Assembly: GCA_943736015.1 (NCBI GenBank)
Contig: OX031062.1
Coordinates: 31,655,462-31,719,461 of the forward strand
Reading direction: 5' to 3'
Origin: Tridacna crocea
Taxonomy: Eukaryota > Mollusca > Bivalvia > Cardiida > Cardiidae
DNA length: 64,000 nucleotides
In this document: positions 3,226 through 49,378 of the stretch, piece by piece
Layout of the letters: every line of letters starts with the position of its first letter
How positions within the stretch are numbered: the first letter of the stretch is position 1
The notes under the pieces: model-generated
Told to the model about the DNA's origin: nothing
What the model saw: the letters and a program-made list of their open reading frames with translations, nothing else
The model's database searches: none
Position numbers and translations under genes: made by a program

Positions 3226-3453
3226 TTAACCATTACCACATAAATTCCTACTTTTGACACCCTTTAAAATGACGCCTTTACAAAACATTGTGGGAAAAGG
3301 AGATAATGCTGGTAAACAACATTATCTCCTTTTCCCACAATGTTTTCTACCCTTCACAAAATAAATTTCAAATTTTCAGTCACTTTTATTTTGTCATCTG
3401 CAAATGCTTTCGATTTGACAAGCCTAAAATACTGTCGTTTGGTAATGAGTTAA
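3226..3453 (+). mobile_element. TM-A MITE, intact, with paired core changes
   Basis: TTAA both ends. Both arms of the core carry a matching private change (GATAATG left, CATTATC right). Confidence 0.92.
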
Positions 3454-3573
3454 AAGTTAAAAACAAATATTGACCAAGGTAAAGGCAGGGTGTAAATGCT
3501 TGTGCAAACAAAAATCCCCATTAATACATTTCCTCCTGCATGCTACTTTCTTTTTGCCTAGTAGTGATGTGCT

Positions 3574-4605
3574 TCAACCCTTTACCAATTAATCCTGTCT
3601 TTCAAAGACTCTAAACAAGAGGACCATAATGGTCCTATATCGCTCACCTGAGTACTAAGCAGCAAAGGCCTACAACAAAGACTATAATTACCAAATATTG
3701 AGGTTCAAGGGCTAATGATGATGAAACAAGAGCGGCAAATTGTTGCAAAATATGCAATCCCACCGCTAGTTGTAAAGGAGGTATAATAGTTGCAAAGGGC
3801 AGGCAATGCAACAAACAATTTGACTTGAAACTTCCAAACAATACAATTAAAATAAAGATCAAAGTGAAATTACCCAATCTCCATGCTAGGTAGAGTTACT
3901 GTTCTTGAACACAGTACTCTGTAATATCACAACAAACATGCATACCAATTTTGAAGTCGTTCCGACTTGAGATGACAAAGTTATATTCCGAACAAGCATT
4001 AAATGCAAACTCATGTGAGATTTCATCAAGACAGACATTTTAACCAATTTTCAATTCAGCTTAGCAAGAAATGTGGTCGCTGGAGTGCCCACAAGAAGAT
4101 TTTTAAAGACTTCCCTCTCTACCTCTATGTGAAATCTGAGACCAACAACATAGGGCTAACTTTCACCCCAGAACCATAATTTGAAGTACCGGTATTTTGG
4201 TAGAGGGCCACTAGATGATGCTACATACCAAATATGAAAGCTCTAGCCCTTATGGTTTGGGAGAAGAAGATTTTCAAAGATTTCCTTCTTTATCGCTATG
4301 TGAAATCTGAGAACCCACAAAATAGGGCCATTTTCAACACTAGGGCCATAATTTGAGGTAGAGGGCCATTAGATGATGCTACATGCCAAATATGAAAGTT
4401 CTAGCCCTTACAGTTTTGGACCTTACAGTTTTTTGTAATTTTCAACTGACGGACGGACAGACGGATGATGGACAATGACTGATCACAATAGCTCACCTTG
4501 AGCACTCCGTGCTCAGGTGAGCTAAAAAGAGGGCTTTTGAAAACAGTGTGGGAAAAGGAGAAAATGCTGGTGACCAGCATTTTCTTCTTTTTCCAAAATT
4601 TATTT
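3574..4605 (+). mobile_element. TM-A MITE split by a helentron-like element
   Basis: Left arm at 3574-3612 (AACCCTTTACCAATTAATCC) resumes at 4529 with GGGCTTTTGAAAAC and the core to 4605; the 3613-4528 element lies between. The right arm is missing. Confidence 0.65.
3613..4528 (+). mobile_element. Helentron/HINE-like non-autonomous element, family 1
   Basis: Starts AAACAAGAGGACCATAATGG; ends in a hairpin (GAGCACTCCGTGCTC) then AGGTGAGCTAAAAA. Subterminal inverted repeats GCTCACCTGAG / CTCAGGTGAGC. Internally two ~160-bp units (at about 4210 and 4370, both containing CCAAATATGAAAG) and a GACGGACGGACAGACGG tract before the tail. The class is inferred from architecture. Confidence 0.7.
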
Positions 4606-4644
4606 CAACCCATTCATTGACAGAAATCATCAAATGAGCTACAT

Positions 4645-4874
4645 TTAACCCATTATCACACAATCCCTACTTTTGACGCCCCTGGAAAAGAAGCCCTTTT
4701 GAAAATATTGTGGGAAAAGGAGAAAATGCTGGTAACCAGCATTTTCTCCTTTCCCCACAATGTTTTCTACCCTTCACAAATCTACTTTCAAATTTTCATT
4801 CACTTTCATTTTGTCGTCTGCAAATACTTTCAATTTGGACAAGCCTAAAATATTGTCGTTTGGTAATGAGTTAA
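4645..4874 (+). mobile_element. TM-A MITE, intact
   Basis: TTAA both ends, centre GCTGGTAACCAGC. Confidence 0.93.
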
Positions 4875-4978
4875 TTTGTCATCTGTCAGTGTGTACAGTT
4901 TTCTCAAGTCTAAATTCCATGGTCTAGCTAATAATTAAACAGTCTGAAAGAGGCTATCCTATAAAGTGCAGGTATCTA

Positions 4979-5035
4979 TTGGTAACCAGCATTTTCTCCT
5001 CTTCACACTATGTTTTTTATCATTTCATACAGAGA
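4979..5035 (+). mobile_element. TM core right-half fragment
   Basis: Begins exactly at the palindrome centre (GGTAACCAGCATTTTCTCC). Confidence 0.6.
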
Positions 5036-5990
5036 CAAATCATTAAAGCCACAACTAATCTGTGATCTGTGAAGTCTCTGGAACAGTCCTTGTACGAGGG
5101 CTGTTCGGAAATTTTTGAGACATTGGTTATAATATGAGAATGATAAGACTTACAAACGAAATACATGTACCTTATCACAGTTAACATAATTATACTTTAT
5201 GCCTTTATACATGCCAAATATCATGTCTTCTGTGTAAGTGTCAGGGCCCTTCTGAAATATACCACTTCAACGTTTTAAACAACAGTGTGACATCCTATCA
5301 ACTTTACAGTGTGTTTTACAATTACAAGCCATTCTTTTTCAATTTAAACTGTGGTTGTTTTATTATACTGCATGGTTGTTTTAACATACTGCAAAGAAAT
5401 TTCTTGTGATCTGATTCGTTAACATGCCAGGAACATATATATCATGTTCCCTGGCAAAAACCATGTAAAGGCAGTTTCCCTTTTGAGTAAACATCACTAC
5501 ATGTGCAACACAACATCCAAAATGGCAGCGTTGATAGAACACCAGACTGCACATTTACGCACCAAACTGCAAGTTTCAGTGACGTCAGTTTCCAGTGACT
5601 TCAGTTTTCATTGAATTGGGTCACTCAGAAGGGAATATCTGTTTCTTCAGTATACTGGATTCGTGAGATTATAAAACAGGAAAATTTCCCTTAAAGCGCT
5701 TTGAAAGTGTAAAACTTTGTTGTACGATCAGGTGACTGGGGACTTGGAAATTTGTTCACGGCTCGGGGCGACATGATTTATCACAGCTGTGAACAAATTT
5801 CCAAGTCCCCTACCTCGTGACTGTGCAACTAAAAATGTCTATGGCTGGCTAGAATAGGAATATTTGCATTTTCTTCTCTTTCATAATCTGTGCAGCCTTG
5901 CAGCCGTCAGGGGCAACATTTGGCACAAAGGTAAAAAAATGATTATAATTTCATATATAAACATCAAAGTTCAGGGGCATTTGTCTGTCT
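5036..5990. other. Gap: no gene; hairpin and possible mariner-end scrap
   Basis: CGAGGGCTGTTCGGAAA at about 5096 resembles mariner-type termini but nothing follows it. The hairpin at 5726-5825 is listed separately. The rest is unassigned. Confidence 0.3.
5726..5825. repeat. Long hairpin
   Basis: Arms GGGGACTTGGAAATTTGTTC (from 5738) and its inverse ending at 5810, loop ~28 bp, with weaker outer pairing. Probably a palindromic MITE; no second copy seen. Confidence 0.6.
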
Positions 5991-6000
5991 CTTGCACAGT

Positions 6001-7439: not shown

Positions 7440-7574
7440 TGCATCTGTATGATGCATCATTCCACAAAAGTCATCACATAATTACGAATCCATAAAAATT
7501 GTGCGTTTCCATCAGCTGGCTCCAGAGGTAAAATGGTCCTCCGACAGGCAGAAAATCTACAAAAAACTAAACAT

Positions 7575-7805
7575 TTTAATCCTTTACCTGATATGCCAAT
7601 TTGAGGCTCTTCTATTTCAGCAGCAAATAAAGATATGATGTCAAAAATATGGATAAATGCAGATACAAATATCTGACTAAGTGGAAAACATTGTGGGAAA
7701 AGGAGAAATTGCTCATTACGAGCAATTTCTCCTTTTCCCTCAATGTTTTCAAAAGCTGTCTGTTGTTGATACGTCAAAATGAGTATCTGTGGAGTAAAGG
7801 GTTAA
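7575..7805 (-). mobile_element. TM-B MITE
   Basis: TTAA both ends, TTTGAGGCTCTTCTATTTCA at left, centre GCTCATTACGAGC. Confidence 0.9.
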
Positions 7806-7890
7806 CCCCTGTCAGCCTGCATAGGCCGACATACGTGAATACATTTTGCAGATACTATTTAGCCCTCTTTTATAGAGCATGGCATTGTAT
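7806..7890. mobile_element. Fragment of the GAGCCATGCTCTG hairpin MITE
   Basis: GTCAGCCTGCATAGGCC and TTTAGCCCTCTTTTATAGAG match the right part of the copy at 31212-31478. Confidence 0.6.
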
Positions 7891-7896: not shown

Positions 7897-8055
7897 TTAG
7901 CTCTTTACCATACAATCCCAGCTTTTTCTTCTTTTCCCACAATGTTTTCTATCCTTCCGAAAGCGAATTTCAATTTTTGAGCCACATTTATTGTCATCCG
8001 CAAATGCTCTTAAATTTGGGCAAGTCTACAATATTGTCGTTTGGTAAAGAGTTAA
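7897..8055 (+). mobile_element. TM-A MITE, left core arm lost
   Basis: TTAG left end; P arm passes straight into TTCTTTTCCCACAATG; Q arm complete. Confidence 0.85.
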
Positions 8056-8281
8056 CCCTTTACTCCATAGATACTCATTTTGACATATCAACAACAGATA
8101 GCTTTTGAAAACATTGTGGGAAATGGAGAAATTGCTCGTAACGAGCAATTTCTCCTTTTCCCACAATGTTTTCAACTCAATCAGATATTTGTAGCCTCAT
8201 TTGTCCATATTTTTGACATCATATCTTTATTTGCTGCTGAAATGGAAGAGCCTCAAATTGGCACATCTTGTAAAGGGTTAA
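8052..8281 (+). mobile_element. TM-B MITE, intact
   Basis: Shares TTAA 8052-8055 with the preceding copy. Centre GCTCGTAACGAGC, right arm TTTGCTGCTGAAATGGAAG. Confidence 0.92.
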
Positions 8282-8338
8282 AAGAATAGTGAGGTATATT
8301 TTTTGTCCTTCACTACAGTGCATGAAATGGATTCTCTT

Positions 8339-9889: not shown

Positions 9890-9926
9890 GTAGGTATGAT
9901 CTATTTTCACCCTAACTTCAAGTGAT

Positions 9927-10155
9927 TTAACCCTTTACTCCATAGATACTCATTTCTACACATCCCTTGTAGGAGCCTTTGGAAAACATCGAGGCAAAAG
10001 GTGAAATTGCTCGAGACGAGCAATTTCACCTTTTGCCACAATGTTTTCTACACTATCAAAAGATGTCATATACACATATGAAATGCCTTTATCCTTGCTG
10101 TTATTTAGGGTCAATTAGAGATACCATAGAAATGCATCATGGGGTAAAGGGTTAA
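9927..10155 (+). mobile_element. TM-C MITE, intact
   Basis: TTAA both ends, centre GCTCGAGACGAGC, right arm AATTAGAGATACCATAGAAA. Confidence 0.92.
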
Positions 10156-11604: not shown

Positions 11605-14600
11605 CTGTAAAACAAAAATGGATGGTAACCCCTTTATAGCACAATTCCTACTTTTGATGTTCCTGAAAAAGAAAAGTATTTGAAATCATGGTGGGGAAAT
11701 GAGAAAATACTGGTACTCAGCATTTTCTTTTTTTTCCCACAATGTTAAATATACTCTTCCCAAAACAAAGTTTAATTTTTGAATCACAATTATTCTGTTG
11801 TCTGCAATGCAGACATGTCAATAATTTTGTCGTTCTGTAGAAGCTTTAAGGGAAAATTGTAGCTCTGTGGTGATAACATGAATATTTACAACTGTCAAGT
11901 AAATATATGACACACGCTCTAAAGTTCATGTATGTTATATACACAAGAATTATACATTGAAATCCTGAAAAGGACAAAGATAGTTTGTCAAAGTTTATTT
12001 AAACCTAGACTCATGCCAAACACTTTACTACGTTCATTTTCACTTGAATATCTGAGTATGGCCAATGTCAAAGGTCATCCACAGAGGATATCCTATTATA
12101 ACTATTCATAGGTCCCATATGATTTGAATTAACACTATTTCATGACCACAACTATTTCATTATTTTTATCACACAACAATGTGTTTTTATGACCCCTGGG
12201 AAAATGGCTTTGGTAAGCAATGTTGAAAAAGAAGAAAATCCTGGTAGCCAGCATTTAAACTTACTTCAATAATGTTTTCTACCCCTTCAAAGATGTATCA
12301 TGTCATTTTACCCTTTATAATCTATGGTGTACACATGCTTTCAAAATCGACAAGTTAACCCTTTGCCACACGAGAAAATTTTACACTGGTCCAAATTGAA
12401 AGCATTTGCAGACGACAAATAAAAGTGACTGAAAAATTGAAATTTGTTCTGGGAAGGAGTGAAAACACTGTGGGAAAAGGAGAAAATGCTGGTTACCAGC
12501 ATTTTCTCCTTTTCCCACAGTGTTTTCAAAAGGCTTCTTTCTAAGGGGCGTCAAAAGTAGGGATTGTGTGGTAATGGGTTAAGAAATTTAAAGTACAGAA
12601 TTAACCCTTTCCCAAACAACAGATTATGGACCCTTCCAAACCAAAAGTGTTTGCAGAAGACAATTCTAAATTTGGAGAAAATTGCAGAAAGTTCTCAAAA
12701 AAAGGTAGAAAACACTGTGGGAAAAGGAGAAGTTGCTCGTTCTGAGCAATTTCTCCTTTTCCCACAGTGTTTTCAAAGACTTTTACAGCAGACACGTAAA
12801 AACCAGGGCTTGTTTGGGAAAGGGTTAAGTTTGGTTTACAGGTTTTTCGTAGCAAAAACGAAAAGTGATATTTTGTTCTGCATCAACTAAAAAATTTGCA
12901 AGAAGGTAGAGATAGCTTTCTCTATCTTACTCCAAACCCCCATGAAAGAAAAGGAGATCCTGCTTCGTACTAGCAATCTTTCCTTTCCACTTTAAGTTTT
13001 TATGTGTGAAATAAAGGTTTTGAAAATATTTTGGGAAACAGACAAAATGCTGGTAACAAGCATTTCCTCCTTTTTTCACATTGATTTTTACCTTTTTCAA
13101 CAAGTCTAAAATTTTGTCTGTTCAGTATTGGTAAAGGGGAAACCCGAGTTCATGTAATTATTTCCCATGCCAAAGGAAAATTCCCAACTCATCCAATAAT
13201 GTGCCGAAAGTACAATTATGAATAGTATGATGAATGATTTTTATGAAAAATCAGAAAGTTGTCAAACATACCCTTTAAATCCAAGATCAGAGACCCTTGT
13301 CTGTGTTAAATCCAAATACTCCAAATTTGGACAAAGGGAGAGAATCTTGTACAGCTAAAGCAAATAAATAAGAAGGTAAATCACAAAAAATAAATACGAG
13401 TTCACACGTCTCAAATGCACTGCCTCCAAGGATAAATCTGAAGCAGATTGATTGGAAAAAGTGGAAATAGTCCACATGCATTTTGGTTTAACCCTTTACT
13501 CCATACATACTCGTTTCTAAGCATTGCTTGTGGGAGCCTTTTGAAAACATTGTGACAAAAGGTGAAATTGCTCGTAACGAGCAATTTCACCTTTTGTCAC
13601 AATGTTTTCTATGCTATCAAAAGGTGTCATATACACATAAGAAACGGCTTCATCCTTGCTGTTATTTAGGGTCAATTAGAGATACCATAGAAATGCCTTA
13701 TGGGGTAATACATACACAAAATACCTAGTAACAGCAAATTTCTGCTTTATCCACCAAAATGGTTTCATTACTACTCTACAAGCAGCTAGAAGACAGTAAG
13801 GTGGTGTGCTGGAAAAAAAATATCTGTATTTATAGGGCCTAACAAAAAGCATCTGTGTTTAGGGTTTCAGTCAGAGATACTGTAGATAGGGTAGGAAGGG
13901 AGATTTTTTTTTTTCTTAAAAAACTTTTTACATGGAAGATATAGTGAAATCACACCTGACAGGTAATTGAAATCACACCCGACAGGTAATTATTGTTTCA
14001 ATCATGGCAAAAAAAAGTTTAGGGTGGGCAGAACTTTCTAGGTAGGGCAGGGAAACCCTTATCAGAGATTTTTTATGGGGGCCTAGGATATGCATACAGG
14101 AGTTTAGAGCTTTCATTCTGTTCATCTATTGTCATCTTACTGGACAATTTTAGAGTTGAAGTGAGTAAATCATAAATACATAATTCATGTTACTATTCCA
14201 ATTCAATTCAGTAAAGCAAAAAAAGTTTGCATTTTGAAAATGCCTATAAAATTAATTACTTCCATTAGATAGTAGTATTAGTATTATACATGTACAATCA
14301 CAATTCTATAGGAGATTTTTTCAAATCAATAAGCACTTTCATTACCATAGCAGCATAAACTATGTAGTGAAAAATATGACATTAAAGGATACGTATGTAT
14401 TATATGTTTCATAGGACAATAGTTCTTGACTAAACAATCCCGGTTTTAGCGACCCTTTATAATAAGCCATTTGAAAACATTGTGGGAAAAGGAGAAAATG
14501 CTGGTAACCAGCATTTTCTCCTTTTCTCACAATGTTTTCTACTCTGACAAGGACAAGTTCTGCCATTTGAGCCGTCTCTAATATGTCGTCTGCAAATGTG

Positions 14601-17600
14601 TTGAATTTGGACCAGTCTAAAATTTTGTCTTTTGAAAAAGTGAAACCAGACTTTGTTTTGCCATTTTGAAAGAAGATCTTGATAAATAAATATAATTTCC
14701 AATAGTGTGACTGTGACTTGAAAAATTAAAACATTGATAGAAAAACTTGTGTTGAAAATACCAGATTTACCGATTTCATCTAAGTTTTTTCCTGTAAGAC
14801 TTTCTATTCTAATAATAACTTTGTCAGAACTGCATAATAGTTATAAATACATTTTTAAGCATGGTAAAGGGTCCCTTGGATCCATAGTTCAAACTTTCGG
14901 TCTTGTCAAAATCTAAAGCATTTGCAGATGACAAAATCAATAAGGTTTTGAAAGGGACTGAAGATTTGTTGGAAAATGAGATGCGGGCTGTCAGCATTTT
15001 CTCCTTTTCTTACAATATTTTCAAAAGCCTTCTTCTTGATATCTTTAAAAATTTGGAAATGTGTGGTAATGGGTTAACAAATGACTCATTTTCACCACTA
15101 GACTCCCTTTTAACCCTTTACCAAACGACAAAAACTTAGTATGGTCCAAACTGAAAGCATTTGCAGACAACAAAATAAGTGTGGCTCAAAACTTGAAATT
15201 TGACTTTTGAAGAGTAGAAAACATTGTAGAAAAAGGAGAAAATGCTGGTAACCAGCATTTTCTCCTTTTCCAAAAACGTTTTAAAAAGGCTGCTTCTTTG
15301 GGGTCATAAAAACCAGGGATTGATTGGTAAAGGCTAAAACTTATCTAAATAAGTGTCCTGTGAAAGGATGATGTATAAAATCTTGTAGTTAACTCACGGT
15401 TCCATTGGTAATTCCTTTACTATATGCCAAATCACATTTCTCAACCGCAGCACCAACTCGGGAAAGAAGAAATTTACACATGCTTGTCAACATCTTTGAT
15501 TCCTTCTGTATCTGTAAATAAAGTACATGCATTCTATTTCTTTTAGAGCCAAATATATGGTGCAGAAACAGAAGAAGTAAGGTTTCCAGCATTTTCTCCT
15601 TTTCCTAGAATGTTTTCAAAAGGCTCTTTTCTCAGGGTCTTGAAAACCAGGGATTGTTTTGGAAAAGTTTTATGTATCAAAAATTCTTTAATGGATACTT
15701 GCCTTTGTTGGATAGGTTCCCCTTTCAATATTAATAAGTTGTCCATTTTTGAAGTAAATATCTTCAGTAACAACAGAGCTATAACAATATGTTGAAGTGT
15801 TTGTTCAGCAGCCCAGGCTATGACACAAGGGCCAGGGTCCAAAAAATCCACTTGTCCTTACTAGTAAAAATTTTGTGAGGGCAAGTGGATTATCCTTCTT
15901 TGTCTAACTGTAGGACAAGTGCAAAATAGCAGGAGGACATGAGTTAGACACACTAATGTCCACTTCTGGGGGCTACGAAAACAAAAAAAACAAGTCAAGC
16001 TTTTCTTCAAAAACCGCCAAGCTATGACTTAATGGAGACAAACCACACTTACATAGCCAGGGTGAATTAATGCAGACTTAGATGTCTAAAATTTCAATAA
16101 AAATCCATCAACCTATGCTGTAATATCAACACAAACACCCTAACATGGTTCTGGCCTGTTTCCTTTTGGATTTATTAAAGAGAGTTAACTCTTTAACACA
16201 CAATCCCCACTTTTAACGACCCTGAGAAAGAAGCCTTTTAAAAACACTGTGGGAAAGGGAGAAAATCCTGGTAACCAGCATTTTCTCCTTTTCCCACAGT
16301 GTTTTCTACCCTTCCCAAACCAATTTTTAATTTTTCAGTTCCCTTTACTTTGTCGTCTGAAAATGCTTTCAATTTAGACCCGTCTGAAATTTTGTTTTGT
16401 GGTAAAGAGTTAATTATGGTAGCCATAACATAATATGGAGTACATTCTGCAAAATTGGTGATGGCCCATTACACATAATTGCTTCCTTTCCATTTTTTTT
16501 AGCAATTTACGGCATCAAGATTTCTTAAAATTTTACTGAGGAATGAGGTACATTTTATTGGATTAGTATACTTCTGTGCCTTTCATGTTCAAGCCATCCC
16601 TTTTACAATTGCAAGTTAAACAAGAGCGGCAAACTGTCGCAAGATACGCCCGTCTTACCCCAAGTTGTAAAGCTGGGGCATGCACCAGACTAAATTCAAG
16701 TATGAAAAACGACAAAGGGCAATAACTCAAAAATTAAGCGAGCAAGAGTTATGATTCCTGCGCACTGCACTCCCCCTTGATGAGATCTATCCACCCATGA
16801 AATTTCATAACCCTAGCTAGTATAGTTTTGGAGATATTCACCAGACAAAAATCAAGTATGAAAAACAACAAAGGGCAATAACTCAAAAATTAAGCGAGCA
16901 AGAGTTATGATTCCTATGCATTGCACTCCCCCTTGATGAGATCTATCCACCCATGAAATTTCATAACCCTAGCTAGTATAGTTTTGGAGATATGCTCCGA
17001 ACAAAAATCAAGTATGAAAAATGACAAAGGGCAATAACTCAAAAATTAAGCAAGCAAGAGTTATGGTTCTCATGCACTGCACTCTCCCTTGATGAGATCT
17101 ATCCACCTATGAAATTTCATAACCCTAGCTAGTATAGTTTTGCAGATATTCACCGGACAAAATTCAAGTATGAAAAACGACAAAGGGCAATAACTCGAAA
17201 ATTAAGCAAGCAAGAGTTATGATTTCTGTGCACTGCACTCCCCCTTGATAAGATCTATCCACCCATGAAATTTCATAACCCTAGCTAGTATAGTTTTGGA
17301 GATATTCACCGGACAAAATTCAAGTATGAAAAAAGGACAAAGGGCAATAACTCAAAAATTAAGCAAGCAAGAGTTATGGTTCTTATGCACTGCACTCTCC
17401 CTTGATGAGATCTATCCACCCATGAAATTTCATAACCCTAGCTAGTATAGTTTTGGAGATATGCTCCGGACAAAAATCAAGTATGAAAAACGACAAAGGG
17501 CAATAACTCAAAAATTAAGCAAGCAAGAGTTATGGATCCTGTGCACTGCACTCCCCATTAGCGAGATCTATTCACCCAAGAAATTTCATAACCCTAGCTA

Positions 17601-20600
17601 GTATAGTTTTGGAGATATGCTCCGGACAAAATTCAAGTATGAAAAACGACAAAGGGCAATAACTCAAAAATTAAGCAAGCAAGAGTTATGGATCCTGTGC
17701 ACTGCACTCCCCCTTGGTGAGATCTATCCACCCAAGAAATTTCATAACCCTAGCTAGTATAGTTTTGGAGATATGCTCCGGACAAAATTCAAGTATGAAA
17801 AACGACAAAGGGCAATAACTCAAAAATTAAGCAAGCAAGAGTTATGGTTCCTGTGCACTGCACTCCCCCTTGATGAGATCTATCCACCCATGAAATTTCA
17901 TAACCCTAGGTCGAATAGTTTTGGAGATATGCTCCGGACAAAGAACTGGACGCCGCCCGCCCGCCCGCCCGTCACGGGTGATCCCATAATACGTCCCGTC
18001 TTCGACGGGCGTATAAAAAGCTGTTTTTATCAGAACACCTGGCAACAAAGCAGAAATTGTAAATCAAAAAGCCAGACTGTATGGTTTCTATGGTCTGCCC
18101 ATAATCTACAATGTTCACATAATCAAATCCTGGGTTTGTATTTACCTACAGTTCTTAAGAACAATCTTAGTCTTATTCTTCGGAATTTTCCAAATTTGAA
18201 AGTGACACAACTTCTGATTGGCTAAACCAAATGGTTTAGCCAATCAGAAATTGTGTTACATTCAAATCTAGAAAATGTTGGAGAATAAGACTAGAAATGT
18301 TCTTACAGATCCTGGTTCAGCGCTAAAAAAATGAAAATCTCTCAAGAGAATATTTTTAACCCATTCATAATAAAAAGAACCATTATACATACCTGCATGG
18401 CTTCCATATCCCAATCATCAGACTCATCTATATCAGCATCTTCATCATACATTTTACCTTCAAGCTTTTTATTTAAGTCTTGGGACTCTTCATCGTATAT
18501 ACCCTCTGTGGCATCCCAGTCGCCTGTAAGAGTGCATAGAATAAAACTAGACACATCCAATGGGGTGCAAGGTCAACTGTCTATGCTGGTTGTTTGATTG
18601 TATGGTGTATAATGCCATTTTCAACATTATTTCAGTTATATCATGGCAACCAGTGCACCTATCTATGCTTTCCTGGAGTTTCTGTTACCAGTACTCTGCA
18701 CAATATTCTTTCCAAGCCACTGGCTGCTTTCCCACATAACCATTCTGGAGACATCAATCAGCTGTGAGAGAGGAATGTAGTCGCAATGACTATCAGGAAT
18801 CCTTTGAAAGAAATTGGCCGAGCCAGTGATCAAACTCATGACCTCCTGTTCTCAAGTCCTGTATGCTACCAGCTACCAACTGAGCTACCAGGGCTTGGCA
18901 ACTGTCTATGTTGTCCATGTTCTCCTAGGGCAAGTACAAGTTTAGCAATTTTCATTCAACTTTTTACCAAATGATGAAATTTTCGACTTGTCCAAACTGA
19001 ATGTATTTGTAGACAACAAAATGAACATGACCCACAAGTTGAAACATGACTTTGAAAGAGCACAAAACAACGTGGGGAATGGACAAAATGCTGGTTACCA
19101 GTAAATGCTAGTTACCAGCATTTTCTCCTTTTCCAACGGTGTTTTCAGAAGGATTCTTCCTCATGGCTCATTAACCTATTACCACACAATCCCTACTTTT
19201 GATGCCCCTGAGAAAGAAACCTTTAGAAACAATGTGGGAAAAGGGGAAAATGCTGGTAACCAGCATTTTCTCCTTTTCCAACACTGTTTTCTACCCTTCG
19301 CAATACAAAATTCAAATTTTTCAGTCACTTTAATTTTGTCGTCTGCAAATGCTTTCTATTTGGACCTGTCTAAAACATTGTCATTTGGTAATGGGTTAAA
19401 GGGACTGTTTGGTGAAGGGTTAATCTACTTTATCATTCATTACATCATAGATGAGCAGTTTATAGTTTTGATAAACCTACTACACAGCAAAAGTTTTTGA
19501 TTAAAGCAGAGTTAGACAACAGACTAAATCAAATCAAGGTTTTGCCTATGGCAGAACAAAGAGCATTGTGAGAAAAGGACAAAATGCTCATAACCAGTTT
19601 ATGTTGTTTAAAACCTGGGGTACTGAAAATCAAGTTTCAATTGAAAAAAAAAAATCATTTCTTCTTTAAAAATCAATATAATGTCTTGTTCTGTTCCTTG
19701 TTTTGAACCTTTGGTGAGAAATTAATTTCACATCCCTTCCTAATTACAACATGCATAGTATAGTTCATATAAAAAATCATGCAGTAAATTACTTAACAAA
19801 ATGACGAAACATATGGAAATTGTTCGACTAAGGCAATTTTCCATTTTTTAAGCTGTTTTGGGGAAATAGGGTTTCATTAAAGCAAGCAGGAGAATTAATA
19901 ATAGGCTTGGATTATTTGCAAGACACCATACATTATTTTATTCTTGAATATGACAATACTCTCTTTTCTTCAACCCAGATTTCTTCCAATACATCAAAAT
20001 GATAATTAACCCTCTGCAAAACATATAGCTTCTTAAAAGATTGAAGGAAAGGGGGAAAATGCTGGTAATCTGGATTTTTTTTGTCCTTTCCGACAATGCT
20101 TCTTACCCATCTAAAGGAGGAACTCCATCATTTCACCCTCATTTCTGTTGTTTGCAAAAGCTTTCCAAATGCCAGAGTCTAAAATCTCATCATCTTTACT
20201 ACATGGCAAAATTTCTGACTTGTCCAAATTTAAATCATCTGCAGATAATAATTCACTCGAAAATTGACATTAGTTAACATACAGGTAGAAAATGTTTCTT
20301 AAAAAAGAGATAATGCTAGTTTGTAGCATTTTGTCAGTTTATTTTATAAACCTCATACCTACAGCTTGTTTCAAGTAAACCAACCATTTCTCCTTTTTGC
20401 ACAATGTTCCGAAAAATCTTCTTTGGGGTCATTAAAACTAGGGGTTGCCTGGTAAAGTCACTTAGAGAGAAAGCTACAAACCATTAGCCCAGCTAACCGG
20501 ATACAGGTTTTTCCACAGTGTTGGGTCAAATGCCAGATTGTTCCATCTCTTACAACCCTGTGCAACATGACACAGATCCTTTGGGTTTAAATAAGAAAAG

Positions 20601-23600
20601 ACATTTAATAGGACTTCATCTGGAAGACTATCAATGTTTACTGAGGGCTCTGTTGGGTCTTTTGTCTTTTTTCCAACCTTCTGTTTAACTGCAAAAGAGC
20701 AAAATACACATAACATTCTACACAGTATCTTATTTATTGTACAGAAGACCAGTTTTGAAAACACTGTGGCAGACAGAAGAAACAGTTTTAAGCCTACGGG
20801 TAATAAATTGACCTTTTCAATTCGGAAAAACACTGTCATTTCATGGTTGTTTGAAAATATATTTCTTCAGCACCACAAAACACTACAAAGAGTTAAGTAA
20901 AGAACATCTTAAGGTACAAGATACGACTAACTGAAAATGCCAGAGTTAAACAATTATTAATCTCAAAGGATCATATCAGCTTGTTTTTTTAGCCTACAGC
21001 TTGAAACAGTTTTACTGTATCACAACTCCCAGATACTCTCTTTATCAGACAATAGTTAGATTTGTTCATCCTGAAAGTATTTGCACCCAAAATTAAATGG
21101 GACTCAAATGAGAGAATTTGTCTTTGAAAGGGTACAAAATACTTTGCAAGTAGGAGAAAAATGACAGATTCAAGCATTAACTGTGGCTGATATTGCTACA
21201 TTATTGTCAAATTGGTGATATTCCAACAACTCTTTCCAAAGTTTTCTTTCACAGGGTCTTAAAGACCTGCTGGAGGTCTTCTGGTAAACGGCTATGCTTA
21301 CCAGATTTACTATCAACAATGACTTTCTCTTCCTCTGCTTCCACTTTGAAATGTTGTTCTAGAACAGCTGCCTTGATCTGTTTCAGTTCTTCAAACGTAA
21401 AATGTTCCATTAGTAGGGGCTGAAACACCTGAAAAATTGTAAGGTTTACAGACAATGATATAGAAAAGAAGTTTTCAGCCATATTTAACCAGGCCCTGGG
21501 TCTGTATTCAGTATTCACCAACCAATTTTAAAGAACATTCTTCATCTTATTCTCAAACATTTTCTAAACTTGAAAATAAAACAACTACTGATTGGCTGAG
21601 AAAAAAAATACTGAACACCAAGTTGTGTATCTTTCTAAATCTAGAATAAGACAAAGAATATTCTTAACACTTTACCAAACAACAAACTAGAAGGCCCTGA
21701 AGGGCCTGAATATGCTCTACTGGCAGAGTTTGCTTTTATGATAGCATATATTATGAATTCATTATGCAAAAAGACGCAGTAATGAATGAATAGCGTTTTA
21801 AGGCCCGTCGACAACTTAGGTCATATTGGGTGCACTTACTTAGTAAACAATAATGCGAGGTGAAAATAACATACATGTGCAACAACATAAGACAAACATG
21901 ATAAATGAGGAATGGACGAAAAAGACAAAGTAGATTTTCAGTCCCTTGATGAATCTTCAAAAGAATTGCATCAACACAGTAAATTTCATTGCCTAAACAA
22001 GAATTGGAAATTTTCAACTTTGAACAGTTACATTTCCAAAACTGATTGTCAGATTTTCTTTTTGAATGAATAGGGTTCAAGCTTTTTATAATACAAAGCA
22101 ACTGTGAGAGTTTTGTGAAAATCCAACTAAAACTGCTGACCTAATCACTTAAATAAGAATTTTCAACTTTAATTGGCTACTTTTCCGATATTGTTTATTA
22201 TTTTTTTTCAAAATCAATAGGGTTGAAGCTACTGATAAGATAAACAAACTGTGTGATTTTCAAGAAAATCTGACAAGAAATGCAGACTTTATCACGTAAA
22301 CAAGAATTGAAATTTTCAATTTGAAATAGCTACTTTTCCCACACTGTTTGTTGGGTTTTTTCCTAAATCAGTATGGTGGTTTTTTTTCAAAATCAATATG
22401 GTTGAAGCTGATGATGAGATAAACAAACTGTTCAAGTTTCACAAAAATTTGATAACAAATGCACATTTTATCGCATAAACAAGAATTTGAAATTTTCAAC
22501 TTGAAATAGCTACTTTTCCCATATTGTTTATTGGATTTTTTCCAAAATGAATAGGGTTGAAGCTACTGATGAGATAAAGAAACTGTGCAAATTTCATGAT
22601 AATGTGACCACAAATTAAGACTTTATCGCATAAACAAGAATTTGAAATTTTCAACTTGAAATGGCTACTTTTCCCATACTGTTTGTTGGATTTTTCTCAA
22701 AATTGATAGGTTGAAGCTAGTGAGGAGATAAACAAACTGTGCAAGTTTCATGAATATCTGACAGCAAATGAAGACTTAATTGCATAAACAAGAATTGGAA
22801 ATTTTCATCTTGAAATGGCTACTTTTCCCATACTGTTTCTTGGATTATTCTCAAAATCGATAGGGTGGAAGCTATTGACGAGATAAACAAACTATGCAAG
22901 TTTCACAAAAATCTGACAACAAATGAAGACTTTATTGCGTAAACAAGAATTGGAAATTTACAACTTGAAATGGCTACTTTTCCCATACTGTTTGCTGGAT
23001 TTTTCTCAAAACCAATAGGGTTAAAGCTATTGATGAGATAAACTGTGCAAGTTTCACAAAAATCAGACATCAAATGCAGACTTTATCGCGTAAACAAGAA
23101 AAAGACTGACGGATGGACAACGGAAACCCAGCCATGACATAAGCTCTGCCGGCTTTCAGCCAGTAGAGCTAAAAATTAGACTGGTCCAAACTGAAAGGAT
23201 TCCCAGACAACAAATTAAATGTAACTGAAATAATGATTTTTGTCTTGGATGAGGAAGAAAACATTGTGGGAAAAGGAGAAAATGCTGGTTACCAGCATTT
23301 TCTCCTTGTCCCACTATGTTTTCACAGGCTTTCTTTCTCATGGGTTGTTAAAAGTCAGATTGTGTGGTAAAGAGTTATGAAGGGCTGTTGACTATGAACC
23401 CAGAGCACTGTTTAACCCATTACCAAACGACAATATTTTAGACTGGTCCAAATTGAAAGCAATTGCAGACGACAAAATAAAATTGACTGAAAATTTGAAA
23501 TTTGTTTTGTGAAGGGTTGAAAACATTGTGGGAAAAGGAGAAAATGCTGGTTACCAGCATTTTCTCCTTTTTCCACAATGTTTTCTAAAGGCTTCTTTCT

Positions 23601-26600
23601 CCGGAGCGTCAAAAGTAGGGATTGTGTGGTAGAGGGTTAATATGGCTGGAAACATCTTGATTTTCAATTTGACTGGTGCAAAATCTTTTCATCTGGTATA
23701 GTCGATAGAACAAAAAAAATATCTAAACTGTTCCAATTTCAAAGCATTTGCATTCATTACGATCAAACTGATCATGGTTTAAATATTGGGATTTGTCAAG
23801 CATCCTCTCCTCTTCCATAGATGTTTTATAAAAGCCACTTCCATCAAGGTCAATAAAAGTTTGAGCACTGTGGTAAAGGGTTGAATATCCTCATTTACTG
23901 GAAAACCACTGCTTTCTGCAAAATATATGCAGCAAACAAGTTTGAAAACAGTCCTTTAAAATGGTGATTAACAATAGTAATGAGGATAAGCGTTTGAATA
24001 CATTTGCAAACATTGTGGTAAAAGACAAATTACTTTTTTAGCAAATTCTTCTTTTGTCATCAGGTCTCCTTAATGATCCCCAGCACAAGAAGAACATTCA
24101 TAATCAAACAGCAATGATTTAACACTTTACCAAACAGATCCCCATCTAAACAACTCTGCAAAGGAAGGCCTTTGAAAACATTGTGGTCAAAGTGGACATA
24201 CTACTAAATGCCATTCCTTCCTATTCCCATGATGTTTCCAACACATAAAAGGGAAAAGGTGATCATTTTAACCCATTACTACACAATCCCTACTTTTGAC
24301 GACCCTGAGAAAGAAGCTTTTAGAAAACATTGTGGGAAAAGGAGAAAATGCTGGTAACCAGCATTTTCTCCTTTCCCCACAACGTTTTCTATCCTTCATA
24401 AAACAAATTTCGAATTTTCAGTCACTTTAAGTTTGTTGAATGCTTTCGATTAGGGTAAGCCTAAAATATTGTTGTTTGGTAATGAGTTAATAATATTTAG
24501 TTTTTTTTTTGTCTCCAAATGCTTTGAATTTGGATAAGTCAAACATACTGTCATTTGGAAAACAGTGACTCATGGATACATTACCTCCTCTTCCTCGGCC
24601 ATATGTGGTAGGAAAGTCTTTGTAAAATCTTCAAGGGCATGTCGTAATTTAATGCCATAGTTCTTCCTATCACTCTCTGACTTTTTCGTACATCTGTATC
24701 CATCTTCTAGAAGACTCAGCATATCTGTGAGTTGGTTATCTTTGTGACAATTGCAGACTGCCGTATTCTGGATGGATAAAGACCGCAACTTATTTTTCAG
24801 TTTTTTCATTATGTATTTATTTTCAATTTGTTCATGGGCAATGAATTCATGGAAAGTCTTTATCAAGTTTTCTAACAGCAAGTTCAGGTGGTAGACATCA
24901 GAAAAGTTTGTAGTTTTCATCTGAAATGAAAAGATACAGTGCTTATTACTTTCTGCAGATCCTGTTATCTTTTACAAAATATTTTACAACAGGTAGATTC
25001 AGAATATGCTAATTACAAGCATTTCTCCCTTTTACAGAATATCTTAATAAAACCTTTCCCTCTTCGGCTATCTACTCATTACCAAACGACAATATTTTAG
25101 GCTTGTCCAAATCGGAAGCTTTTGCAGACGACAAAATAAAGGCGACTGAAAATTAGAAATTTGTCTTTTGAATGGTAGAAAACATTGTGGGAAAAGGAGA
25201 AAATGCTGGTTATTAGCATTTTCTCCTTTTCCCACAATGTTTTCTAAAGGCTTCTGTCTCAGGGTCGTCAAAAATAGGGATTGTGTGGTAATGGGTTAAA
25301 GCATGGAAAAAGTTTGAAAAGTGTGGCAAGTACATGTATGTCTGAGTCAAAGGGAAAAGATTTGATGTGATTAAACTTCATATTATTTTCTTTTTCCATT
25401 ACAGATTAGTACCTCATGAATAGGAATTAATGTTCAATGACAATTTCTATGTTGACATGGTACCAATCGCAATTTTCTATTGCAGCTCATCAAATTGCTT
25501 CAGGACTAAAAAGTCCTGCATAGACAGGTGGTCAGACCTAATAGGTTGATTGCAGAGGCATGGTTGTAAACTATACTGCTGGGTCCCAACTTTCTTGAAA
25601 AGTGTACCTACAGTACTATTGTCAGCAGCTATCATTTCCAGTTCAAAAACAAAATGAAGTTCGGCGGTCAAACAAGAGGCAGTTTTAACCCGTTAAAACC
25701 ACCAATTGACCTCTATGACCAGTATTGACCAGTTATGACCAATTAAAACTCGTATTGACTGCCATCTTGTCAACTTTCTTTACTTTATCAACATGAAAAA
25801 TGCTGTTGAAGCTATATACCTTTCTGCAAGATTTGAATAAGTGTGTAAGAGAACATTGATAAAATGAAACTGTGCACAAGCATCATTTTCAAGTTATGTC
25901 CAGGCTTACTCTCAATAATGAGACACTATGGTGATTTTTTCATATTTGGACATTCATTATGCACCATACTGCCTCAAGTCCATCACAAAATTTAAGGTAG
26001 CAAAAGCAGAGCGCTGTACTGCTTACCTGTTTCGTCCGTTTAATCTGTAATAAATGCAGCAAAAAGCAACTAAATTTAAGTAACTTACATGACCAAAGAC
26101 AGATTATTTAACCTTTCATCATCTTAAAAGGTTGTAGAAGTCATTTATGTCAGGCATGTAAATCTCAAAAAAAACCACTGAAGAAATTTATCATGCGTGG
26201 CAGTGATTTTTATCGTTTTCGGGAATGTAAACAACTCGAGTAACTGATGAAATGCAGTTTTCTGTGATGTTCAGCATTTAAATTGAAAATATTTGTATTT
26301 CGAACAAAGGATTATTAAATAAACAGGCATTGAGGCAACAGGTATGTTTAAATCCTAGTTTTGTGCCCTATTTGCGAAATTATGAGATTTCCAATTTGCT
26401 CACAATATCTGTGCAAAACTTTCAACTGGTTTTGTCGTGAATGTCACTGTACCCAGAGGCAACCAAGTCAAAAAAAAAAAAGCCTTAGGGGACAGTTATC
26501 TGTTCTATGTTCAGGCTGTGTATTGCTGACTGTTTTCTATTTATTTAGTGGTGTCAGGAGAAATCGGCCCCTGGAGAAATCGGCCCCTGGTGAAATCGGC

Positions 26601-29276: not shown

Positions 29277-29840
29277 ATGGCGACTCGAAATTATCCGGCA
29301 GACACACAAATTCAGAAGTTCTTAGAAGAATCGTATAATAAGGAGAGAGATACGCGACTGGGATGGTTTGCTAAACGAGGTGCCGTAGATTCTGGAAAAT
29401 CAAAACAGTACGAAGCATTCAGACGTAAAATTGAAAATGAAGCTAAACCAGCTGAAGGACTGTTAGCTAAACTGCCAAAAGATGTGAAAGAGCAGCGATA
29501 CAATAAGAAAATCAAGCGTTTTGACGATATCTTAGCAACCAAGGCTAACGGTGCCAATCTCTTGAGCGCCGAGATGAAACCAGTTACACCAGAGACAAAG
29601 GTGAGATTATATGATGGTTTCACCAAGGAAGGAAAAGGTCGCTACCAGTACTTGTCATCTCGATACGAAAGAAATCCAGAGGACAAATTTAGTTTTCCTT
29701 TATTAAGTTCTTGGGAGTACGGATGGAGGCTTGGTGATGTCATAAAGAAGGACGACATAAGAAAACCAAAACATGGACGCACAAGAATAGTTGCTGATAC
29801 ATTTTATACACGGACTGGTATTCCAACGGCAAGCATGTAA
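29277..29840 (+). CDS. SPMIP1 (ATP6V1FNB)-like sperm microtubule inner protein
   Basis: Single-exon frame of 187 residues, start ATG with A at -3 and G at +4, AATAAA 100 bp after the stop. The C-terminal half carries LYDG (111-114), GRYQYLSSR (121-129), SSWEYGWRLG (144-153) and TFYTRTGI (175-182). These align with what I remember of human SPMIP1 (LYEG..., GRYRYLNTR, ...FTYGWQLG), and the N-terminus has the matching basic helix (FLEESYNKERDTRLGWFAKRG). The family coats the inside of sperm-axoneme doublet microtubules. No signal peptide or membrane segment; highly basic. It shares a 250-bp promoter with FBXL5. The family call is from memory of one sequence; a different ciliary MIP family is the main alternative. 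Confidence 0.75.
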   Translation: MATRNYPADTQIQKFLEESYNKERDTRLGWFAKRGAVDSGKSKQYEAFRRKIENEAKPAEGLLAKLPKDVKEQRYNKKIKRFDDILATKANGANLLSAEMKPVTPETKVRLYDGFTKEGKGRYQYLSSRYERNPEDKFSFPLLSSWEYGWRLGDVIKKDDIRKPKHGRTRIVADTFYTRTGIPTASM

Positions 29841-37125: not shown

Positions 37126-37195
37126 ATTAAATAGCAGACGATGCTGTCTCGTCATTACCATCACGGAGCTCCACATAAGAAGGAATGATAACTTT

Positions 37196-37427
37196 TTAGC
37201 CCTTTCCCAAACGACAAAATTTTAGACTGGTCCAAATTGAGAAGCGCTTGCAGACAACAAAATAAACGTAACTCAAGAATTGGAATTTGTTTGAAACAGG
37301 ACAGAAAACATTGTGGCGAAAAGGAGACAATGCTGGTTACCAGCATTGTCTCCTTTTCCCACAATGTTTTCAAAAGGCTACTATCTCAGGGTCGTAAAAA
37401 ACCACGGATTGTTTGGGAAAGGGTTAA
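37196..37427 (-). mobile_element. TM-A MITE with paired core change
   Basis: GAGACAATGC left and GCATTGTCTC right: matching private change in both arms. TTAG left, TTAA right. Confidence 0.92.
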
Positions 37428-37443
37428 TTTATCCGTCATTTTT

Positions 37444-44055: not shown

Positions 44056-44129
44056 CCTGTCACTGGGCAAAAATATGGACTCCTATAAACTCAAAACACA
44101 TTTTGCAAACAAATTTCATGAGGCTCAAA

Positions 44130-44420
44130 CAATGTTTCTTTCTATGATAGAGTAGAAAACATCGTGGATAAAGGAGAAAAAGCTGGTTACCAGTATTTTC
44201 TCCTTCATTGTTGCTAAAGTGATAGTACATGTATCTGTCTATGATAGAGTAGAAAACATTGTGGATAAAGGAGAAAATGCTGGTTACCAGTATTTTCTCC
44301 TTCTTTATTGCTCAAGTAGTAAGTACATAATGTATCTGTCTATGATAGCATAGAAAACATTGTGGACAAAGTAGAAAATGTCGGTTACCAGTATTTTCTC
44401 CTTTTTTCAAAAGCCTTTTC
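44130..44420. repeat. TM core triplication
   Basis: Three ~100-bp tandem units, each TCTATGATAGAGTAGAAAAC then core with GCTGGTTACCAG; starts near 44140, 44233 and 44335. Confidence 0.85.
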
Positions 44421-46332: not shown

Positions 46333-46337
46333 AGTAC

Positions 46338-47035: not shown

Positions 47036-47084
47036 AACTTGAAATGTTTGCTAAAGGAATAAACTTTGCTACTCCAGAAGAGTT

Positions 47085-47190
47085 TTTCCGGGTCCAGTAT
47101 AAAGCAAGCAGTTTTTTGAAAACATTGCGATAAAGTTGTTCATAATCAGCAATTTCTCCTTTTGCTGCAGTACTTTAATATGTATCAAGG
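47085..47190. mobile_element. TM core remnant
   Basis: GAAAACATTGCGATAAAG, AGCAATTTCTCCTTTTGC. Confidence 0.45.
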
Positions 47191-47278
47191 ATCATAGTTA
47201 TTATTGATACATGTATGGATAATTGGACCTCTCAACATTTTTATATATATTAACCTTTAATATCCTGCTAGATGAATT

Positions 47279-47333
47279 AAACAAGAGCTTTACAGAGCGG
47301 CGCATATATGCCTGAAGGGGCTTGTCACTGAAT
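47279..47333 (+). mobile_element. Helentron-like head fragment
   Basis: AAACAAGAGCTTTACAGAGC to GGGGCTTGTCAC, followed at once by TM core sequence. Confidence 0.6.
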
Positions 47334-47377
47334 TTTCTCCTTTTCCCATTATAACATTTTCAAAAGAAGTATTCCTC

Positions 47378-47506
47378 AACTCATTACCAAGCGACAAAAT
47401 TTTAGGCTTGTCCAAATTGACAGCATTTGCCGACAACAAAATGAAAGTGACTGAAAATTTGAAATTTGTTGTGTGAAGGGTAGAAAACATTGCAAGAAAA
47501 GGAGAC
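47378..47506 (-). mobile_element. TM-A left half, interrupted
   Basis: Q arm and core to GAAAAGGAG, where a helentron-like element begins. Confidence 0.75.
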
Positions 47507-48027
47507 AAGAGCTTCGCGAAGTGGCGCATATACGCCCGAAGGGGCTTGTCAGCAAAATGAGTTGAAATGACGGAAGGGCCATGAATGAAGAATAGTTAAT
47601 CTCCATAATATGTGAAAAATATTAAAGGGCAATAGCTAAAAAAAGAAAAGTGGCACAGTTACAAATTTTGTAAATTGCTGTTCTCCACAAGGTGTTCTAT
47701 CAGTCTTGAAAGGTTCAAGATCATAGCTTTTATATTTTAGAAATTATGTCCCAGACGAAAATTCAAAGAGAAAACTAACAAGGGGCAATAACTCAAAAAG
47801 AAGGATGGCAGAGTTATGGTTCTTATGCAGTACACTTCTTCATAATGTGTTCTATTAGTCTTTGAAGTTTCAGATGATAGGTTTTAAAGTTTGGAAGTTA
47901 TGGCCTGGAAAAAAATTCAAACTGAAAATTAACAAAGGGCAATAAATAAAAAAAAAAGTCAGAGTTATGGTTCATGTGAACTGCACTTCTCTATAATGTG
48001 TTCTATCACCTTATGAAGTTCCAAGCC
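47507..48027 (+). mobile_element. Helentron-like element, 3' truncated, ~155-bp units
   Basis: Head ACAAGAGCTTCGCGAAGTGG; three units marked by AAGGGCAATA near 47624, 47783 and 47935. Unit words (GAGTTATGGTTC, CACTTCT) recall family 2. Confidence 0.7.
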
Positions 48028-48520
48028 CCCTTTTCATAGAGCAGGGCTCAATCGTTATATACAATCCCTGCACCTCATCTACGCAAGCCAAGACTGACAA
48101 TTCACTACGCTACTCTACCCTTGGCAGATCAAGCTTGATTTTTACATTCCCCCAATACTCTTTTTCATTGGATGCAGCCAGCTCTAGCTGCAACGAATGA
48201 AATCGCTCATAGCATTTCATCTTTGATAAAAATAGAATAAGGTCGCGACCGTTCGAAAAGAAGGTATACATGGAAACCCAAGTGATGTCTGCTTATCGCT
48301 TCCTGTTGAATAATTGTATTCGTAAGCGGTTTGTAAAACTATACTTCATTGGCTTTCAGAAATATGATGTAAAAGGGGGTGATAACCAGCATCCAATAGA
48401 GGGCGCATCGCAGGAATCTCGAAATCGGGCTCAATCAGCCAAGGTAAGATACACGTAGTGATCGTAACCTTGGCTCGCAAAGATGCTGCACCTACACTAG
48501 GGTAGACTTTAGTATTTGCA
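48028..48520. other. Gap: MITE-end scrap and an unassigned open frame
   Basis: CCCCCTTTTCATAGAGCAGG is the end of the GAGCC hairpin MITE. A frame at 48270-48443 ends at a good donor (AAG/GTAAGA) but is unrecognised. Confidence 0.35.
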
Positions 48521-48524
48521 GTCA

Positions 48525-48592
48525 TAATATTCCCACAATGTTTTTAAAGACTTCCTTCCTCAGGGTTGTTTAAAGCTTGATTGTGTGGTTAA
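48525..48592 (-). mobile_element. TM-A right-half fragment
   Basis: TTCCCACAATGTTTTTAAAG to GTGTGGTTAA. Confidence 0.65.
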
Positions 48593-48818
48593 TCCTTTAC
48601 CACACAATCACCACTTTTCACGACTCTGAGGGAGTAGCGCTTTGAAAACATTGTGGGAAAAGGAGAAAAATGCTGGTAACCAGCATTTCCTCCTTTTTCC
48701 ACAATGTTTTCTACCCAGCTAGAAACCAATTTCAGTTTTTGAATTACATTTATTTTGTCGTCTGCAAGTGCTTTCAATTTCGACTAGTCTAAAAATTTGT
48801 CGTTTGGTAAAGGGTTGA
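48589..48818 (+). mobile_element. TM-A MITE
   Basis: TTAA left, TTGA right. Confidence 0.92.
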
Positions 48819-49148
48819 AAGGTTAGAGCATCACAATGTCAGCATCAAACAGTGAGCTTGTTTCATCACTATGTGCAGCAGTGACAAGTGATATTTTACA
48901 ACATAATACCAACAAATATTGCATTGATACACTGGGTTTATCTAGGAGTCAACCTTTTCTCTGCCGAAATACTACATTAAGTACATCAGTGTATAGAGAA
49001 ACAAAGAAAACCTATCAAACAGTGTTGTTTTTTGATATTTTATTGAAAATAGAATAAACACAGGCCTGCTGCGGTGAATACTTAAAATTGTTACAATAAC
49101 TTTTCAACTTGTTGTAAATGCTGTTAGAAAAAAAAGAAGATAACATTA

Positions 49149-49378
49149 TTAACCCATTACCAAAGGACAATATTTTAGACTGGTCCAAATTGAAAGCATT
49201 TGCAGACGACACAATAAAAAGTGACTGGAAATTTGAAATTTGTTTTGTCAAGGGTAGAAAACATTGTAGGAAAAGGAGAAAATGCTGGTTACCAGCATTT
49301 TCTCCTTTTCCTACGATGTTTTCTAAAGGCTTCTTTCTCAAGGGCGTCAAAAGTAGGGATTGTGTGGTAATGGGTTAA
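49149..49378 (-). mobile_element. TM-A MITE with paired core change
   Basis: TTGTAGGAAAAGG left and CCTTTTCCTACGA right: both arms carry GTAGG for GTGGG. TTAA both ends. Confidence 0.93.

What the first reader, a model, noticed from the sequence alone, without database searches (positions are those of the whole stretch)
3226..49378. Paired substitutions keep the central palindromes symmetric in single copies
Individual copies carry private changes present in both arms: GATAATG/CATTATC (3226 copy), GTGAC/GTCAC (13488), GACAATG/CATTGTC (37196), GTAGG/CCTAC (49149). Independent mutation would rarely hit both arms at mirrored sites. This suggests intra-palindrome correction (hairpin-templated repair or replication template switching), which may also explain how A and B/C/D centres diverged while staying palindromic.
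Basis: partly seen in the sequence, partly recalled or inferred. Interest (0 to 1): 0.75.

Follow-up and report, generated by a model that had tools for sequence, protein, structure and literature searches.

The report
Jumping DNA keeps its palindrome symmetric
A very abundant small transposon in this animal genome carries a 67-base palindrome whose two halves change together between the families that spread but hardly ever in the dead copies left behind, so its symmetry seems to be kept while the element is mobile.

Summary
About a third of this animal window matches one group of ~230-bp TTAA mini-transposons, each with a 67-bp palindrome (33-bp arms). Over 80 copies, private mirrored changes are at chance (17 against 15.8). 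In the 42 copies with young flanks there are 4 against 1.14 (P 0.024), but sites hit differently in both arms are almost as raised (4 against 1.48). Older copies show no excess (11 against 13.4), so repair inside resident copies is not supported.

The strong signal lies between families. Right spacers of families A, B1, B2 and D have fallen to 32-66% identity, while the core stays 84-97% identical. Every core substitution separating six family consensuses is mirrored (five sites); none is unpaired. On a flank tree, mirrored:unpaired is 8:20 on internal and 4:208 on terminal branches.

Mirrored changes therefore belong mainly to source lineages. I favour selection for a symmetric, sequence-specific core during mobilisation; arm-to-arm template copying may supply the second change. 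No copies outside the window could be obtained.

The parts
3226..3453 (+). Element copy of the A-T66 type; core 3281-3347, mirrored T 3304 / A 3324 (site 82), with further unpaired changes
13486..13717 (+). Element copy of family D; core 13543-13609 is perfectly paired; mirrored A 13555 / T 13597 (site 71), right half shared with 61548 and 36749
37195..37429 (-). Element copy; core 37304-37371 with one inserted base; mirrored C 37328 / G 37348 (site 82), no other arm substitution
49149..49380 (-). Element copy; core 49257-49323; mirrored A 49268 / T 49312 (site 70), one unpaired change; fragment 43272 shares the left half
57957..58104 (+). Partial copy with mirrored site 78 and a deleted palindrome centre; fifth mirrored case among little-changed copies
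61548..61684 (-). Family D copy (matched part), sister of 13486: right-arm change at site 71 present, left arm unchanged
9924..10155 (+). Family D copy with the mirrored D core (sites 72, 79, 84, 89)
51484..51715 (-). Family D copy, D core with left site 84 unpaired
7574..7806 (-). Family B2 copy (B centre, T66)
8051..8283 (+). Family B2 copy (B centre, T66)
1073..1302 (-). Family B1 copy (B centre, mirrored C66)
12601..12830 (-). Family B1 copy (B centre, mirrored C66)
56781..57012 (-). A-C66 copy, highest-scoring match, no unpaired arm change
55634..55865 (+). Copy inside the A-C66 clade with only one arm C at site 66
60589..60836 (+). Family B2 copy whose inner arm and centre are duplicated (about 16 bp extra within 60645-60727)

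Best explanation
These are non-autonomous TTAA mini-transposons, most likely of piggyBac type. Their 67-bp palindrome is a maintained working part, probably needed in cis for mobilisation as a hairpin/cruciform or as a symmetric protein site. Shown: core sequence and symmetry persist between families whose spacers have diverged almost beyond alignment; the substitutions that separate family cores are all mirrored; changes in resident copies are nearly all unpaired; the small excess of mirrored singletons sits in little-changed copies and does not grow with age. Inferred: mirrored changes arise in mobile source lineages, because asymmetric cores spread less well and a second change that restores pairing is favoured, and are then carried into new insertions. 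The second change may come from independent mutation or from one arm templating the other.
For: Six of seven family consensuses have all 33 pairs; the substitutions separating the six are at sites 66, 72, 79, 84 and 89, all mirrored, none unpaired. Right-spacer identity between B1, B2, D and A types is 0.32-0.66 while core identity is 0.84-0.97. Internal branches: 8 mirrored, 20 unpaired, 1 differently hit; terminal branches: 4, 208, 13 (Fisher 5e-6 for mirrored against unpaired, 68 copies). No mirrored excess in 38 older or flank-poor copies (11 against 13.4). Arms carry fewer private changes than spacers in the two best-sampled clades, also when composition-matched without CpG (37/717 and 30/1044 against 84/1079 and 113/2097).
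Against: No function of the core was tested. Some unpaired changes are shared by well-supported pairs of copies (right site 71 in 61548 and 13486; left site 67 in 27458 and 23166), so a one-mismatch core can apparently still spread. Deep nodes of the flank tree have low support. The terminal repeats, also expected to be functional, show less of a deficit of private changes than the arms (16/263 and 24/502). Core exchange between families could imitate conservation.
Confidence: 0.5

Rival explanations
1. Arm-to-arm template copying tied to mobility: when the element is excised, replicated or repaired, the extruded hairpin lets one arm template the other, so that a single mutation becomes mirrored (or is erased) in the copies that spread.
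For: Excess of mirrored over differently-hit sites in little-changed copies (5 against 0.95; 1 against 1.23). 37195 and 13486 have no other arm substitution at scored sites. The family D trio looks like a step caught half way. Four of the five family-level sites are A-T/T-A or G-C/C-G flips, which have no G-U intermediate. Copies at 60589 and 18956-19166 have duplicated inner arms, as a switch at the palindrome could leave. Arm homogenisation by template switching is known (abstracts: PMC8794818; PMC8604942).
Against: It keeps arms alike but does not explain why the core sequence is conserved. The flips are over-represented against the resident spectrum (25% of 361 changes; binomial P 0.018 for 4 of 5, taken at 26%), which simple copying of ordinary mutations does not predict. 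In 42 flank-young copies the control class is almost as raised as the mirrored one. Centre inversion is weak: 8 T, 6 G, 3 C, 62 A and one gap among 80.
Confidence: 0.22
2. Exchange of whole cores between families: ectopic conversion among the many copies homogenises the core while spacers drift, and symmetric variants travel as modules.
For: The B centre occurs in two flank backgrounds, B1 (near A types on the flank tree) and B2/D, and mirrored C66 occurs both in B1 and in the A-C66 clade.
Against: The B pattern needs only one change if B1 branches at the base of A, which the low support of deep nodes allows. Core position is nearly constant (56-58 and 106-112 bp from the ends), as in plain descent. 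It does not explain how new symmetric variants arise.
Confidence: 0.14
3. Correction inside resident copies: hairpin-templated repair or replication switching acts on each copy where it sits.
For: Mirrored singletons in little-changed copies; the process is known in other organisms (abstracts).
Against: No excess in older copies and no age term. Unpaired changes outnumber mirrored ones 86 to 4 even in the 42 flank-young copies.
Confidence: 0.07
4. Chance: the listed singletons are coincident independent mutations.
For: All 80 copies together are at expectation (17 against 15.8), and the differently-hit control is also raised in flank-young copies (4 against 1.48).
Against: 5 against 0.95 in 54 little-changed copies (P 0.0015). 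It cannot explain the family-level changes.
Confidence: 0.07

Closest known systems
piggyBac-like non-autonomous elements (MITEs)
   Same: TTAA at the ends, followed by CCCTT or CCCAT, motifs reported for animal piggyBac ends (PMC10813416, passages; consensuses)
   Different: No transposase seen in the window. A long conserved central palindrome shared by families with unrelated spacers is not mentioned in the passages seen.
Kolobok / T2-MITE elements of Xenopus
   Same: TTAA target and long-lived MITE subfamilies (PMC6004289, passages)
   Different: T2-MITE ends carry an AGGRR motif after TTAA; these carry CCCTT/CCCAT. 'Palindrom' does not occur in that paper's main text.
Pearl-family MITEs of bivalves (e.g. 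DTC84)
   Same: Bivalve MITEs; DTC84 is reported to have a conserved palindrome near its repeat junction (PMC5139131, passages)
   Different: Pearl elements are modular with internal satellite-like repeats (same passages); these have one long palindrome. No sequences were compared, and that the window is bivalve is my guess.
Template switching in hairpins and inverted repeats
   Same: Both arms change together; arm homogenisation and spacer inversion (PMC8794818, abstract and one section; PMC8604942, abstract)
   Different: There the changes are described in RNA genes and yeast coding DNA; here they are confined mainly to the mobile lineages of a transposon, with conserved core sequence.

Membership tests
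piggyBac-like MITE | TTAA at both ends | tested here: inconclusive
   22 of 44 near-full-length copies have TTAACC at the left and TTAA at the right end; 26 left, 30 right. Whether TTAA is a target duplication needs empty sites, which were not available.
piggyBac-like MITE | Terminal motif CCC(T/A)T after TTAA | tested here: met
   Family consensuses read TTAACCCTTT or TTAACCCATT, except A3, whose three-copy consensus begins one base short; motif from PMC10813416 passages
piggyBac-like MITE | Mobilised by a piggyBac-family transposase | not testable with these tools
   Only three ORFs of at least 150 aa were scanned with Pfam, none a transposase; shorter ORFs were not scanned and no genome is held
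Kolobok / T2-MITE | AGGRR terminal motif after TTAA | tested here: not met
   Consensus ends are CCCTT/CCCAT; motif from PMC6004289 passages
Template switching between palindrome arms | Arm homogenisation beyond chance | tested here: inconclusive
   Excess in little-changed copies (5 against 0.95), not in the older or flank-poor copies (11 against 13.4), and a raised control in flank-young copies
Template switching between palindrome arms | Inversion of the centre between the arms | tested here: inconclusive
   Centre A to T in 8 of 80 copies, to G in 6 and to C in 3; not all eight are clean inversions
Pearl-family MITE | Internal satellite-like repeat module | tested here: not met
   The ~230-bp consensuses hold no such module on inspection; no sequence comparison with pearl elements was made

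The most novel reading that the evidence does not exclude
Mobilisation itself symmetrises the element: the 67-bp palindrome is extruded during excision, replication or repair and one arm is copied onto the other, so that transposition 'proof-reads' the core. The group thereby keeps a perfect palindrome while its spacers diverge to near-randomness.
Probability: 0.2. Interest if true: 0.8.

Novelty: new variant of a known kind. Interest (0 to 1): 0.48.

Why it matters
MITE interiors are usually taken as expendable filler (general knowledge, no call). Here an internal palindrome is the best-kept part of the element across families with very different spacers, and its halves co-vary mainly in the lineages that spread. 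If the density of this window holds genome-wide (an extrapolation, not measured), one assembly would hold of the order of a million copies and thousands of paired and half-paired cases. That would directly test how paired changes get fixed: by selection, or by template copying. It also corrects the tempting reading that each genomic copy repairs itself.

Tried and rejected
Correction in resident copies was set aside as the main cause. Chance was set aside for little-changed copies and for family-level changes, but not for the 80 copies together.

The strata were chosen after a first look at the data, so all are given. Permutation of right arms (mirrored observed against expected): flank branch <0.06, 2 against 0.23; 0.06-0.12, 2 against 0.42; >=0.12, 5 against 4.8; no tree, 6 against 5.1; unpaired count 0-2, 5 against 0.54; 0-3, 5 against 0.60; 3-5, 1 against 1.06; 6-9, 2 against 2.6; 10 or more, 7 against 9.7. 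The unpaired-count strata favour mirrored sites, because a mirrored pair adds nothing to that count, and the permutation ignores differences in divergence between copies. Simulation keeping each copy's own counts: flank <0.12, 4 against 1.14; rest, 11 against 13.4; total arm changes <=4, 5 against 0.95; 5-8, 2 against 1.5; >8, 8 against 12.0; differently-hit sites in the same order: 4 against 1.48, 17 against 17.5, 1 against 1.23, 5 against 2.07, 15 against 15.7., edge pair 59 included: <=6 changes, 8 against 2.4 (differently hit 4 against 3.0); >6, 9 against 13.5 (18 against 18.5). Pair 59 was dropped.

The likelihood-ratio P-values printed rest on a near-zero chance term for clean copies and are not used.

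Searches for copies elsewhere found nothing: three viral-contig scans and one genome-contig scan with short exact patterns. Rfam and tRNA scans were empty. Literature searches listed no paper whose title or visible abstract start describes this element; five papers were opened in part, so this is no proof of absence.

The A3 consensus (three copies) scored 26 of 33 pairs. Two of its copies have a one-base left-arm insertion, of different bases, which shifts the register. I count it as an indel, not as seven unpaired changes.
Full report
What it is. The window has no tRNA and no Rfam family at the gathering score, one ORF matching sperm microtubule inner protein 1, and no held genome. It is animal nuclear DNA; that it is a bivalve is my guess from a recalled resemblance of a repeat near 3620, no call. 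A profile built from 40 window copies gives 230 hits, 130 after removing overlaps, covering 33% of the window. The unit is about 230 bp, ends in TTAACCC(T/A)TT and holds a palindrome with 33-bp arms around one centre base, 56-58 bp from one end and 106-112 bp from the other in seven family consensuses. Four cores folded as single strands give near-perfect hairpins, z -13.5 to -15.1.

The four examples. All four mirrored pairs exist. Among the ten nearest flank relatives listed for the 3226, 37196 and 49149 copies, none shows the mirrored state, though several lack one or both sites. The fragment 43272 has the left-arm half of the 49149 change and no right arm. The fragment 47376 has the 37196-type base at the very edge of its match, which I take as uninformative. 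For 13488, the right half is shared with 61548 and the fragment 36749, and 61548 is its sister on the flank tree, support 100. Either the right arm changed first and the left followed, or both changed and 61548 went back.

Chance. Eighty copies with at least 26 of 33 readable pairs were classified against their core type: 17 private mirrored sites, 22 hit differently in the two arms and 341 unpaired changes, against 15.8 mirrored and 21.3 different in a simulation keeping each copy's divergence and site rates. Over the whole set, mirrored changes are thus at chance. In the 54 copies with at most four arm changes there are 5 against 0.95 (P 0.0015), while differently-hit sites are at expectation (1 against 1.23). 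Sorting by flank branch length instead, 42 young copies have 4 against 1.14 (P 0.024), but the differently-hit control is nearly as raised (4 against 1.48, P 0.054), so that test alone is weak. The permutation gave a smaller expectation (0.66) because it ignores differences between copies. Strata were chosen after a first look.

Age. Repair inside resident copies should make mirrored sites accumulate while a copy sits in the genome. The 38 copies with longer branches or no usable flank have 11 against 13.4. A Poisson fit, with unpaired arm changes as the measure of age, leaves no age term. In the two best-sampled A clades, arms have fewer private changes than spacers (67 of 1769 against 216 of 3319, sums). 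The difference remains after matching composition and dropping CpG (37/717 and 30/1044 in arms, 84/1079 and 113/2097 in spacers, for G+C and A+T sites), with terminal repeats in between (16/263 and 24/502). Unbiased copying between arms would not lower this count, since erased changes are balanced by doubled ones (my reasoning). The cause of the lower rate stays open: residual constraint, base context, or conversion from other copies.

Between families. Right-spacer identity is 0.32-0.50 among B1, B2 and D, 0.39-0.46 between A types and B2 or D, and 0.64-0.66 between A types and B1; left spacers range from 0.45 to 0.76 in these comparisons. Cores are 0.84-0.97 identical. Six of seven consensuses have all 33 pairs; the seventh (A3, three copies) has a one-base left-arm insertion and scores 26 by shift. 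Substitutions separating the six lie at pairs 66, 72, 79, 84 and 89, all mirrored, none unpaired. On the flank tree (68 of the 80 copies), parsimony puts 8 mirrored, 20 unpaired and 1 differently-hit change on internal branches, and 4, 208 and 13 on terminal branches (Fisher 5e-6, mirrored against unpaired). One of the eight is a return at site 66 caused by the place of copy 16182, and the mirrored change at 89 in B2/D is split by a noisy neighbour. Many internal unpaired changes fall on small groups of old copies, but two well-supported pairs (61548/13486 and 27458/23166) share one, so a one-mismatch core can spread a little. Mirrored C66 takes 3 Fitch changes on this tree, against a mean of 11 for shuffled labels: clade-bound, with at least two gains. 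Deep nodes have low support.

Mechanism. Symmetrising alone does not keep a sequence the same, and here sequence and symmetry are both kept. I therefore put first a maintained function of the core during mobilisation, with mirrored changes fixed in source lineages and carried into copies. Template copying between arms is known elsewhere (PMC8794818, abstract and one section; PMC8604942, abstract) and may supply the second change. For it: little-changed arms around the mirrored sites, and duplicated inner arms at 60589 and 18956-19166. Against it as sole cause: four of five family-level sites are A-T/T-A or G-C/C-G flips, while 25% of resident changes are (P 0.018, five sites only), and the centre-inversion signal is weak. 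Exchange of cores between families is possible too. Shown: the contrast between source lineages and resident copies, and conservation of the core. Inferred: that symmetry matters for mobilisation, and how the second arm gets its change.

Relation to known systems. The ends match motifs reported for animal piggyBac elements (PMC10813416, passages) and not those of T2-MITE/Kolobok (PMC6004289, passages). TTAA is present at both ends in 22 of 44 near-full-length copies. No transposase was seen in three ORFs scanned, and no empty site could be examined. Bivalve pearl MITEs are modular and one has a conserved palindrome (PMC5139131, passages); no sequences were compared. I rate this a new variant of a known kind, of moderate interest. 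All evidence comes from one 64-kb window, so 'private' means private among 80 copies.

Noticed in passing
60645-60727: One B2 core has an extra ~16 bp: the inner left arm and centre are present twice, as slippage or strand switching at the palindrome could leave.
   Followed up: partly
18956-19166: Another copy with a repeated inner arm and centre (two GTTACCAG stretches) and a broken left half.
   Followed up: partly
44129-44407: Truncated palindrome cores arranged as a 97-bp tandem repeat, 2.8 copies: a mini-transposon turning into a small satellite?
   Followed up: no
model sites 67 and 69 in many copies, e.g. 6816, 34808, 7677, 54047, 59286: Some unpaired changes recur and lean to one arm in separate families (T69A 7 left, 2 right; T67A 4 left, 2 right), as if the arms mutate differently.
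   Followed up: no
16680-17942 and 22377-23100: Two unrelated-looking tandem arrays with nearly the same period (156 and 155 bp; 8.1 and 4.7 copies).
   Followed up: no
26557-26673 and 28186-28303: Short tandem arrays of a palindromic GGAGAAATCGGCCCC unit at two places 1.6 kb apart, probably the ends of another element.
   Followed up: no
29277-29840: ORF matching sperm microtubule inner protein 1 (SPMIP1, E 2.5e-38), the one clear gene among three ORFs scanned.
   Followed up: no
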